Source: Thermoplasmata archaeon
GTDB taxonomy: Archaea > Thermoplasmatota > Thermoplasmata > RBG-16-68-12
Direction of reading: 5' to 3'
Assembly: GCA_036395115.1 (NCBI GenBank)
Contig: DASWDU010000030.1
Coordinates: 1 to 57,329, forward strand
Length of the DNA stretch: 57,329 bases
Below the pieces are notes generated by a model, which searched no databases, was not told the DNA's origin, and was given only the letters and a program-made list of their open reading frames with translations. Positions within the stretch are counted from its first letter, which is position 1. The number at the start of each line of letters is the position of its first letter. The position numbers and the translations under genes are program-made. Below are positions 8,933 to 57,329 of the stretch, one piece after another.

Positions 8933-9004
8933 CCGGGGTGGCGACCCGCCTCCGGGGGATAGCCGTTGCGACGAGGTGGGCGAACCGCCGAGGTTCTGTG
9001 ACCC

Positions 9005-9170
9005 TTGCGGGGGGGGTATCATGCCGTCCCCGCTAGGGACTCCACTCCGCTCGGCTCCTCCCGTGCGTCTCCTCCTTCTCGGAGGAGGTCGTAGAGGGGA
9101 CTCACGACGTCATCGCGGAGGGCACCGGGCCGGAACCGTACGGCCCTTGCCAAGGCCTCGTTCGAGGCCA
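9005..9170 (-). ncRNA. Predicted omega RNA (TnpB guide scaffold) at the tnpB 3' end
   Basis: TnpB proteins use an RNA from the 3' end of their own gene whose last part reads into flanking DNA. Here that segment has three hairpins: 9026-9030/9036-9040, 9069-9075/9081-9087 and 9154-9160/9163-9169. All three recur at 35051-35217 with compensatory base changes. If the scaffold ends near 9005, the guide would be the reverse complement of bases below 9005, close to the exonuclease 5' end. The RNA itself is inferred, not observed. Confidence 0.55.
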
Positions 9171-10251
9171 AGGCGGTCTTCAGGATGTTCATGCCTGCGT
9201 TGATCTGCCGGTCCATCTCCCAGTCGCACGCGAGGCACACAAAATCCTGGCCCACCCTATCTCGGCGCCGGGCGCCACACACTGGGCAGGTCTTGCTGGT
9301 CCACTGAGGGTTGACTTTGATGACCGGCACGCCGGCGAGGGCGGCCTTGTATTCGATCTGACGGTGAATCTCGGAACGAGGCCAGGAGGAGAGGCGGCGG
9401 TTCGTCCGACGGCATCGGCCTCCCGCGCCGTGGAGCGTGAGATCCTCGAGGACGATTGCGGCACGACGCGCCTTCGCGAGCGTCACGAGATTTTTCGAGA
9501 CTCGATGCAGGCGCTGTTGGACGCGGTTCCTCTCCCTCTGTCCCTCACGGTCCAATAGAATTCGCTGGACCCTGCAATCGTAGGCCTTCTTCCGAGCGAG
9601 CCGCCGACGTCGACGGAAATGGATCGCCTGGACCCAACGGACGCCGGCCAAAGGCACCCTCACGGCCCCCGCGGTGTCGCCACTTGCGATGACGCCGTCG
9701 AGGGAGTCCTCATTCGTGTCGAGGGCAATTGCGGCTCCTGGCTCGTACGGCTTACGCACCTCCTTCCGCACGACAATGATGATCTTCCCGGGGACTACGG
9801 TCAGGCTTCCAAGGCCCCACGACGGGTCGTTCAGGATCGAGCGGTGCCACTCGGAGAGGGGCAGGATGAGCTGGACGCCTTCCGTACCGCGAATCGGGAT
9901 GCGGAGGCGTCCCGTCTCTCGGTCCAGGGAATAGGACTGGTTCTCCGCCTTCAGCATAAGGCGGCGCATATACGGGGTTGTGGTTCGCTTCCCCATCCTG
10001 ACTCGCCGTCGATACACCTTCAGAACGGCCAAAGCGACCTCGAACCCAGAGGGGATGTACTGCTTGTACACCGCGTGACGCGCGGAAAGGTCTTTGTACG
10101 CGGCCTGAGCGAGCCGAGCGCGGGATCGGTGGTTCCCCAGCAGGGCGCTCCGTATCGATTCGTTCACAAGGAGGCGAAACTCGGCCAGAAGCCAGTTCAG
10201 TCGGAAGTCTTCCCATTTCACCAGGAAGACGAGGGCCCGGTGGGCGAGCAC
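9019..10251 (-). CDS. tnpB: TnpB, RNA-guided nuclease of an IS200/IS605-type element
   Basis: 410 residues, full length for a compact TnpB. The RuvC active site looks complete: Asp178 in IALDTNED, Glu269 in IVLEDLTLH, Asp347 in MDRQINAGMNIL. The zinc ribbon CPVC (322-325) and CLAC (339-342) is intact. A basic helical segment (FRRRRRLARKKAYD) precedes the second motif. The start is probably GTG 10251; no better ATG is in frame. The last codons overlap the predicted omega RNA. With all catalytic residues kept, it is likely active rather than a nuclease-dead derivative. Confidence 0.9.
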   Translation of the reverse strand: MLAHRALVFLVKWEDFRLNWLLAEFRLLVNESIRSALLGNHRSRARLAQAAYKDLSARHAVYKQYIPSGFEVALAVLKVYRRRVRMGKRTTTPYMRRLMLKAENQSYSLDRETGRLRIPIRGTEGVQLILPLSEWHRSILNDPSWGLGSLTVVPGKIIIVVRKEVRKPYEPGAAIALDTNEDSLDGVIASGDTAGAVRVPLAGVRWVQAIHFRRRRRLARKKAYDCRVQRILLDREGQRERNRVQQRLHRVSKNLVTLAKARRAAIVLEDLTLHGAGGRCRRTNRRLSSWPRSEIHRQIEYKAALAGVPVIKVNPQWTSKTCPVCGARRRDRVGQDFVCLACDWEMDRQINAGMNILKTALASNEALARAVRFRPGALRDDVVSPLYDLLREGGDAREEPSGVESLAGTA

Positions 10252-10419
10252 GTCCCTCGCATAGGGAAGATGTGGGCGTCAGGTTATGGGGAGGAGATGC
10301 CCGAAAGTGAAAATCCGGATCGAGGGACGTCACGAGTGGCGACTGGCTACAGGCTCGCCGTACTGCCCAACCCCGAATGGTTAGGTCCCGACGGCGTCAC
10401 ATTACAAACCGCGGAAAAA

Positions 10420-34066: not shown

Positions 34067-35034
34067 GCGCCCTTCTGACGACGAGCGTCGGCTCGTTCCC
34101 CAAGCCCGACTATTTGCAGCGGGCTCGCACGAAGGCCGCGAGAGGTGACCTTGCGAAAGCAAGCCTCCGGGACCTCGAGGAGAAGGCGACCGCGGAGTGG
34201 ATCCGCTTCCAAGAGGAAATCGGCATCGACATCCCGGTCGACGGCGAGCAGTACCGGGGCGACATGGCGACGTATTTTGCGGAGAACATCGAGGGCACGG
34301 AGATCTCGGGGCTCGTGCGTTCGTACGGCAACCGCTATTACAAGAAGCCGATCATCGTTGACGAGCTCGGCGTGCACGGGCCGATTAGCGTCGACTGGTT
34401 CCGGTTCGCGCAGGCCCGGACCAAAAAGCCGGTCAAAGGGATGATTACGGGCCCGTACACGATGATGGACTGGTCGTTCGACGAGTTCTACGGCTCGCGG
34501 GAGGAGGCGTGTCTCGCCTTCGCGAAGCTGCTGCATCGGGAGGTGGTCGCCCTCGAGGCGGCGGGCGCGAAGATCGTCCAGGTCGACGAGCCCGCCCTCT
34601 CGACGCGGTTCGACGAGCTGCCGTTGCTCGTGAAAGCCGTCGGGGTCGTGACGAGCGGCCTCGAGGCGAAGACGATCCTCCACACCTGCTACGGGAACTA
34701 CAACGAGATCTTCGAGTACTTCAACAAACTGCCCGTCGACCAACTCGACCTCGAGATGTCGAATTCGGGGCTCGACCTCCTCGATCGGTTCAAGAAGGAG
34801 CCGCTGACGAAGGAGATCGCCTTCGGGGTCGTCGACGTGCACAGCCACGTGGTCGAGCCCGAATCGCTCATCCGCGATCGGATCGAGAAGGCCTTGACGA
34901 TCTTCGAGCCGAGCAAGCTCTACGTCGACCCGGATTGCGGCCTGAAGACGCGGACGGTCGAGGAGGCCCAAGCGAAACTCCGGAACATGGTGGCAGCGGC
35001 GCGGGCGGTCCGGAGCGCGCACCACCTGACGTAG
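34063..35034 (+). CDS. metE: Core methionine synthase (MetE C-terminal type)
   Basis: 323 residues. It transfers a methyl group from a donor to homocysteine. All zinc-site features are present: LHTCYGNYNE (His and Cys near 206-208) and DPDCGLKTRT (Cys near 292), with QVDEPALS as substrate-binding motif and SVGSFPKP at the start. Stand-alone archaeal MetE cores use methylcobalamin or a corrinoid protein rather than folate; the donor here is unknown. It directly follows its zinc-less paralog. The orphan TnpB remnant begins about 15 bases after its stop. Confidence 0.9.
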   Translation: MSALLTTSVGSFPKPDYLQRARTKAARGDLAKASLRDLEEKATAEWIRFQEEIGIDIPVDGEQYRGDMATYFAENIEGTEISGLVRSYGNRYYKKPIIVDELGVHGPISVDWFRFAQARTKKPVKGMITGPYTMMDWSFDEFYGSREEACLAFAKLLHREVVALEAAGAKIVQVDEPALSTRFDELPLLVKAVGVVTSGLEAKTILHTCYGNYNEIFEYFNKLPVDQLDLEMSNSGLDLLDRFKKEPLTKEIAFGVVDVHSHVVEPESLIRDRIEKALTIFEPSKLYVDPDCGLKTRTVEEAQAKLRNMVAAARAVRSAHHLT

Positions 35035-35041
35035 GGCGGTT

Positions 35042-35330
35042 CTATACGGTTTGCGGGTGATGGCCGTGAAGCCGTTCCCGCAAGCGAACTCCACTCCGCT
35101 TCCGCTCCTCCGGTGCGCCTCCCAGGCGCCCTGGGAGGTCGTAGTGGGGACTCATCGCATCACGGCGGAGGGCACCGGGGTGGAACCGTACACCTCTTGG
35201 CCTCCTGATGGGAGGCCGGGTTGGCCCGGTTGGGCCCACGGATGGGCCGTCGCTCCCCCGAGATGCGACGCCATCGTCGCACCCCGGGCCCGCCCGTGTT
35301 CTGCGCAGTGCGCGTCATGCCGGGCGGACC
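35042..35330 (-). pseudogene. TnpB C-terminal remnant, frameshifted
   Basis: On the minus strand, VRFHPGALRRDAMSPHYDL matches VRFRPGALRDDVVSPLYDL at the TnpB C-terminus (9019-10251). Just upstream, in another frame, ANPASHQEAKR matches TALASNEALAR, so at least one frameshift separates them. Further upstream only faint traces of the zinc ribbon remain. No active site is left, so it cannot encode a nuclease. Confidence 0.65.
35051..35220 (-). ncRNA. Orphan omega-RNA-like structured segment
   Basis: Three hairpins match those at the intact tnpB 3' end, with compensatory changes: 35074-35077/35086-35089, 35118-35126/35130-35138 (nine perfect pairs) and 35199-35205/35211-35217. The coding frame has decayed while the pairings persist. 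Whether it is transcribed is unknown; the predicted guide would be the reverse complement of the metE-proximal bases below 35051. Confidence 0.5.
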
Positions 35331-35462
35331 ACTCGGACGGTGGTCTTCCACCGGGGGTCTCGGTGATCCTTCCTTTGGTTGCCGTGTCTATGGATGTATC
35401 GGAGGGAGATGAATGAAGGTGAAATCCGGACGAAGCGGCCCTCCATTTGACCATAGCGCGTG

Positions 35463-35526
35463 CCCGGCAGTTCTCTAACGGAAGCGCGATGCGGTGGGCA
35501 ACCACCGCGGCGAAACCGCTGCCGGG
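35463..35526 (+). other. Nested hairpin, possible left-end structure or small RNA
   Basis: CCCGGCAG (35463-35470) pairs with CTGCCGGG (35519-35526). Inside is GCGGTGG-GCAA-CCACCGC (35491-35508), a perfect stem with a GNRA loop on the plus strand. It may be the TnpA-recognised left-end hairpin of the decayed element, or an independent RNA just before the DUF2203 gene. Confidence 0.45.
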
Positions 35527-35563
35527 TGACCACCTAGGCAAAGGGTAATCTCCTCCCACGTCA

Positions 35564-55954: not shown

Positions 55955-57329
<1,375 letters not shown>

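What the first reader, a model, noticed from the sequence alone, without database searches (positions are those of the whole stretch)
35051..35220. Orphan TnpB-type RNA end with compensatory base changes
The segment matches the 3' end of the intact tnpB at 9005-9170 in block order. The protein sense is broken, yet three stems are preserved: GTCCC/GGGAC became GTTC/GAAC; CTCCTCC/GGAGGAG became CCTCCCAGG/CCTGGGAGG; GGCCTCG/CGAGGCC became GGCCTCC/GGAGGCC. Changes on both sides of stems point to selection on RNA structure. TnpB-derived guide RNAs persisting without their nuclease gene would be worth knowing in archaea, and the intact TnpB could use this RNA in trans.
Basis: partly seen in the sequence, partly recalled or inferred. 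Interest (0 to 1): 0.75.

Follow-up and report, generated by a model that had tools for sequence, protein, structure and literature searches.

The report
TnpB guide-RNA miniature transposon in archaea
The segment is a small transposon that has lost its TnpB nuclease gene but kept the guide RNA that TnpB would use, and it belongs to an apparently undescribed family of archaeal TnpB elements that carry inverted-repeat ends, duplicate nine bases of target and land just beside host gene promoters.

Summary
The 35051-35220 segment is the right half of a 493-bp element (35038-35530, RNA on the minus strand) without tnpB. It is one of about six such copies in a soil Thermoplasmata-type MAG that also has about five tnpB copies. 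Its omegaRNA-like scaffold covaries strongly (34 copies: 97% paired, covariation 0.259 vs 0.099 shuffled). The signal persists among nine tnpB-less copies alone, which form their own clade. A loop/3'-end pseudoknot (GGUUC/GAACC) abuts the guide and changes in step in distant families. The elements are not IS605-like: they have terminal inverted repeats and 9-bp target duplications, and family f1 has no detectable Y1 TnpA. TTN precedes the duplication in 26 of 26 non-f15 sites, and an A+T box lies further out, often 35-36 nt from a divergent start codon. Miniature copies with intact scaffold and perfect duplications exist in a related family, so they moved without tnpB. Most likely these are guide-carrying miniature transposons served in trans by TnpB. 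Caveats: W35 is an old, partly decayed copy; its S3 hairpin also occurs in tnpB-linked copies; transcription, use in trans and the transposase are not shown.

The parts
35038..35530 (-). TnpB-less miniature element W35 (right end 35038, left end about 35530)
   Evidence: Homologous copies, empty site in G011, G006, G009, G001, G013 and others, same site filled by a full tnpB element in G017 (L054)
35029..35037 (.). target-site duplication, right copy (start of the guide)
   Evidence: GCCCTACGT vs left GCCTAGGTG; diverged, 6/9 at the register found by the scan; family-wide 9-bp duplications
35531..35539 (.). target-site duplication, left copy (diverged)
35540..35542 (-). TTT before the left duplication: candidate TAM (TTN)
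   Evidence: TT at -3,-2 in 26 of 26 sites of families f1/f4/f5/f8
35088..35201 (-). omegaRNA-like scaffold core, match to covariance model R1 (120 bits; W35 was among the sequences used to build R1)
35199..35217 (-). hairpin S1 GGCCUCC/GGAGGCC
35177..35196 (-). hairpin S2 (GAGGU/ACCCC; one A-C mismatch in W35) with loop GGUUC at 35183-35187
   Evidence: GGGC(C/U)/(G/A)GCCC in tnpB copies, mostly GGGGU/ACCCC in orphans
35118..35138 (-). variable hairpin S3 CCUCCCAGG/CCUGGGAGG
   Evidence: up to 16 of 34 copies changed on both sides at a pair
35038..35042 (-). 3'-terminal GAACC, pairs with the S2 loop (pseudoknot) just before the guide
   Evidence: own 4.84 of 5 pairs vs 3.65 across groups; GGUUC/GAACC vs GGCUU/A(A/G)GCC
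35018..35037 (-). predicted guide (first 20 nt after the right end), antisense to the 3' end of the cobalamin-independent methionine-synthase-like gene
   Evidence: unique in own genome within 2 mismatches
8992..10406 (-). full tnpB element W9 (inverted-repeat end 8992; 9-bp duplication TCGGCGGTT/TCCGCGGTT, 8 of 9)
9019..10251 (-). intact tnpB gene (RuvC D178, E269, D347 conserved)
   Evidence: Pfam PF07282, NCBIfam NF040570 above cut-off; dN/dS about 0.2
9039..9151 (-). omegaRNA-like core of the tnpB copy, overlapping the end of the gene

Best explanation
W35 is an old copy of a miniature transposon derived from a TnpB element by loss of most of tnpB. It keeps its right end and the omegaRNA scaffold. 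The RNA would start inside the element or at the neighbouring promoter region, fold into S1-S2-S3 plus a long helix, close with the S2-loop/GAACC pseudoknot, and continue into the flank, whose first 9 nt are the duplicated target and act as guide. Intact TnpBs made elsewhere in the genome would bind it and cut alleles that lack the element (TTN + guide match), so that repair restores the element. Movement uses an unidentified transposase supplied in trans that makes 9-bp duplications next to promoters. Shown by sequence: anatomy, covariation, pseudoknot, inverted repeats, duplications, TTN, promoter-proximal position, intact selected TnpBs, a tnpB-less clade in more than one archaeal family. 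Inferred: transcription, loading in trans, cutting, retention drive, transposase.
For: Covariation in all copies and in orphans alone; orphans form their own clade across two families, branch support 0.88, although from a short 107-column alignment; pseudoknot conserved and compensated; scaffold model found in 47 of 400 genomes of the class; 9-bp duplications: 9 of 27 elements at 8/9 or better vs 1.17 expected, maximum 4, perfect ones in f8, f15 and in tnpB-less miniatures L198, L203, L209, L216; inverted-repeat pattern counts in f8 27 forward + 19 reverse vs control 2 + 0; TTN 26/26; TnpB catalytic residues and dN/dS about 0.2; full tnpB copy at the same site in G017 and empty sites in other relatives.
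Against: No transcript evidence. W35's own inverted repeat and duplication have decayed and two base pairs are broken, so this particular copy may be dying. Two of nine f8 miniature elements lack a recognisable scaffold (L201, L209), so the RNA is not needed to move. The S3 hairpin type of W35 occurs in a tnpB-linked copy, so part of the covariation may be inherited or exchanged. In family f1 the comparisons rest on fragmented MAGs. No transposase was found.
Confidence: 0.62

Rival explanations
1. The pairing is kept because the DNA end is a transposase-binding or hairpin-forming site; the RNA has no role.
For: The element ends must be recognised in trans; terminal inverted repeats are conserved.
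Against: The covarying stems lie about 60-180 nt inside, at one end only, and turn over in sequence; the GGUUC/GAACC pairing tolerates G-U, which is RNA-like; miniatures L209 and L201 have inverted repeats without the recognisable scaffold, and L209 also has a perfect 9-bp duplication, so movement does not need it.
Confidence: 0.12
2. The orphan elements are passive relics or cheaters: structure is inherited from tnpB-linked parents and only slowly decays; no function in trans.
For: W35 has decayed ends, two broken pairs, and an S3 hairpin type shared with a tnpB copy.
Against: All nine orphans keep the 5-bp pseudoknot potential and together 94% of pairs although they form their own clade present in two families; miniatures in f8 moved recently with intact scaffold.
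Confidence: 0.2
3. Orphan guide RNAs have become regulators: TnpB plus guide binds the left junction (TTN + the 9 nt of the duplication) without cutting and affects the divergent promoter beside it.
For: The left junction keeps a candidate TAM and a 9-nt match next to an A+T box, often 35-36 nt from a start codon. From general knowledge (not read here), nuclease-dead TnpB relatives act as RNA-guided repressors.
Against: The TnpBs here keep RuvC residues; W35's duplication has diverged, so its own junction is no longer well matched.
Confidence: 0.06

Closest known systems
IS200/IS605 and IS607 TnpB-omegaRNA systems (e.g. ISDra2 TnpB; IS607 TnpB with RAGATH-18 RNA, PMC11061315)
   Same: TnpB nuclease with RuvC residues, structured RNA overlapping or following the gene end, guide taken from the flank, short 5' TAM-like motif
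   Different: Those elements lack inverted repeats and target duplications (PMC3627910) and use Y1 or serine transposases; here inverted repeats, 9-bp duplications, no Y1 in 22 genomes of the family
PATEs of Haloquadratum (PMC3119063)
   Same: Archaeal miniature elements, some made by core deletion of TnpB elements, without a transposase gene of their own
   Different: PATEs have no inverted repeats or duplications, and a retained guide RNA was not described in the passages read
Fanzor in eukaryotic cut-and-paste transposons (PMC3627910, PMC10711439)
   Same: TnpB-type protein inside elements with inverted repeats and target duplications
   Different: Eukaryotic or viral; here archaeal, tnpB is the only gene in the full elements examined, and tnpB-less copies keep the scaffold
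RAGATH-18 RNAs not next to TnpB (36% in PMC11061315)
   Same: TnpB-type guide RNAs found without adjacent TnpB
   Different: Not described as complete miniature transposons in the passages read

Membership tests
IS200/IS605 | Y1 (HUH) TnpA in the element or the genome | tested here: not met
   PF01797: none in own genome nor in any of 22 genomes of family f1; controls ring. Present in some other families of the class, e.g. G038
IS200/IS605 | no terminal inverted repeats, no target duplication | tested here: not met
   Inverted repeats up to about 24 bp and 9-bp duplications
TnpB-omegaRNA systems | TnpB family protein with RuvC D-E-D | tested here: met
   NF040570 above cut-off, PDB TnpB/Cas12f matches, residues invariant in the alignment
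TnpB-omegaRNA systems | structured RNA at the 3' end of the gene with guide in the flank | tested here: met
   Covariation and pseudoknot; guide position inferred from the element boundary
TnpB-omegaRNA systems | RNA-guided DNA cleavage with a TAM | not testable with these tools
   TTN 26/26 is only a candidate TAM
MITE / non-autonomous DDE-type transposon | short, inverted repeats, fixed-length target duplication, no transposase gene | tested here: met
   At family level, e.g. L198, L203, L209, L216; in W35 itself the repeat and duplication are decayed
MITE / non-autonomous DDE-type transposon | a partner transposase in the genome | tested here: inconclusive
   No other element with this repeat found; IS256 (PF00872) absent in 19 genomes; other DDE families not searched
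PATE | no inverted repeats, near-terminal palindromes, no target duplication | tested here: not met

The most novel reading that the evidence does not exclude
A family of archaeal TnpB transposons that move by an inverted-repeat, 9-bp-duplicating mechanism aimed at host promoters, and that has spawned miniature elements whose only retained function is a guide RNA: selfish homing guides that borrow the TnpB of other copies to hold their insertion sites.
Probability: 0.45. Interest if true: 0.88.

Novelty: new variant of a known kind. Interest (0 to 1): 0.76.

Why it matters
Prokaryotic TnpB has been described in IS200/IS605 and IS607 elements, which lack inverted repeats and target duplications; the literature searched here held no archaeal TnpB element with both. 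If confirmed, TnpB was captured by a different transposition mechanism outside eukaryotes, paralleling Fanzor. The miniature copies would be guide-only parasites, making the question of what TnpB does for a transposon testable: does a guide alone, with TnpB in trans, hold an insertion? The promoter-proximal landing also points to an archaeal counterpart of promoter-targeting retrotransposons.

Tried and rejected
IS605/IS607 origin of mobility: no Y1 in the family, inverted repeats and duplications present (serine recombinases were not searched). IS256 transposase: none in 19 genomes. Autonomous partner with the same ends: the repeat-like hits followed up were tnpB elements, miniatures, contig-end pieces or single unpaired repeats. 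Guide targets elsewhere in the genome: none within 2 mismatches of 20 nt. Rfam: no omegaRNA match at gathering scores. Coding explanation for the orphan core: frames broken by indels between copies. The duplication scan missed elements with internal deletions (L034, L046) because of a fixed search window; they were read by eye.

Full report
Check. The finding sits in an archaeal contig (archaeal SSU rRNA; close TnpB relatives are all 'Euryarchaeota archaeon' records, mostly MAGs; that the class is Thermoplasmata is my inference). The segment 35051-35220 resembles the 3' end of the window's tnpB and at least ten other places in the same genome.

The unit. Copies without tnpB share a longer sequence than the tnpB end. 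Its interior looks like decayed tnpB: the C17 copy still aligns to TnpB 271-400 at 39% with four stops. The right end is ..AGAACC; the left end was fixed by empty sites. In G011, G006, G009, G013, G001 and others the methionine-synthase-like gene runs directly into the DUF2203 gene; in the window 493 bp are inserted, and in G017 a full tnpB element sits at the same place (L054). So W35 spans 35038-35530. The own genome holds about six tnpB-less copies and about five tnpB copies, some cut by contig ends.

Ends. C16 has inverted repeats of about 24 bp and a perfect duplication CGGTGGCGG; L047 (TGGCGGCAT) and L053 (GCCACTCGC) also have perfect 9-bp duplications. In a scan of 27 elements, 9 reach 8 of 9 or better, against 1.17 expected and a maximum of 4 in 300 shuffles of flanks between elements. 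Distant families show the same: L159, L186, L170, L188 perfect, with repeats GGTTCTG.. in f8 and (G/T)GCTTTGGGATT.. in f15. The repeat pattern occurs 27 times forward and 19 reverse in seven f8 genomes against 2 and 0 for the reversed control. Y1 transposases are absent from all 22 genomes of family f1.

Structure. RNAalifold on 34 copies gives S1, S2, S3 and a long helix; 13 pairs have double changes. Pair counts beat all shuffles and all slid versions, and do so for the nine orphans alone. S2 is GGGC(C/U)/(G/A)GCCC in tnpB copies and mostly GGGGU/ACCCC in orphans. The S2 loop GGUUC is complementary to the terminal GAACC that precedes the guide; in f15/f24 it is mostly GACUU or GGCUU against A(A/G)GCC (own 4.84 of 5 pairs, across groups 3.65). 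A tree of the core without S3 separates orphans from tnpB-linked copies (support 0.88, short alignment). Caution: hairpin S3 of W35 is shared with a tnpB copy of G021 and orphans of G029 and C17, so some change is older than W35 or exchanged; W35 itself has two broken pairs. The orphan-only test is nine sequences, and its shuffles do not remove relatedness.

Miniatures elsewhere. In f8, nine paired-repeat elements of 283-444 bp were read; seven hold the scaffold, and L198, L203, L209 and L216 have perfect 9-bp duplications. L209 and L201 lack a recognisable scaffold, so movement does not need it. L183 and L184 are further short copies with 8 of 9 duplications; L224 and L225 likewise carry scaffold between repeats.

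Landing sites. In 31 sites aligned at the left duplication, bases -3 and -2 are T in 26 of 26 elements of f1/f4/f5/f8 and not in the five of f15/f24; positions -12 to -7 are A+T rich (0.97 at -10 and -9). Several of these 31 registers, W35's among them, were chosen by eye. On the other strand the box reads like BRE + TATA (e.g. GAAAGCTTTTATAT), and 14 of 31 sites have a long divergent ORF starting 34-37 nt away, with 12 such starts at offsets 35 and 36, against about 0.3-0.4 per offset elsewhere and none at 34-37 on the right side. TTN may therefore be a TAM, part of the promoter motif, or both; its absence in f15 where the box remains favours a TnpB-linked role, on five cases only.

TnpB. Own and related proteins keep RuvC residues, match NF040570 and evolve at dN/dS about 0.2. 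W35's guide has no second match within 2 mismatches in the genome, as expected for a guide that addresses its own empty site.

Reading. Anatomy and selection support a family of TnpB transposons with a non-IS605 mobility and guide-retaining miniature derivatives. That the orphan RNA is made and used in trans is the most economical explanation of a conserved scaffold in tnpB-less, recently mobile copies, but it is an inference. Literature: TnpB-only elements were reported to lack inverted repeats and duplications (PMC3627910); PATEs are the nearest archaeal miniature elements (PMC3119063); TnpB acts as a drive for insertion sites in plasmids (PMC11870625); 36% of RAGATH-18 RNAs are not next to IS607 TnpB (PMC11061315). 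No paper found described the present combination, within a library that lacks most subscription journals.

Noticed in passing
31 insertion sites incl. window 10407-10415 and 35531-35542: Elements of this family land just upstream of a BRE/TATA-like box, often 35-36 nt from a divergent start codon: promoter-proximal targeting in archaea.
   Followed up: partly
window 35038-35530 vs L054 (G017); L029 (G018) vs L039 (G014); L025 (own C7) vs L038 (G017); L033 vs L049: Same insertion site occupied in different species, sometimes by a tnpB-less copy in one and a full tnpB copy in the other; suggests old insertions with interior replacement or loss.
   Followed up: partly
L175 (G029:C145) and L176 (G019:C111): A second, distinct tnpB-less scaffold family shared by two archaeal families.
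   Followed up: no
L201 (G158), L209 and L229 (G077): Miniature elements with intact inverted repeats but deleted or unrecognised scaffold.
   Followed up: no
window 35118-35138 and the same hairpin in other copies: Hairpin S3 appears in a few sequence types that recur in distant copies, as if exchanged as a module.
   Followed up: no
f15 loci L170, L187, L188, L171: Different inverted repeat (GCTTTGGGATT) and no TTN before the duplication: a second subfamily with its own candidate motif.
   Followed up: partly
window 55955-57329: Archaeal 16S rRNA gene running off the contig end.
   Followed up: no
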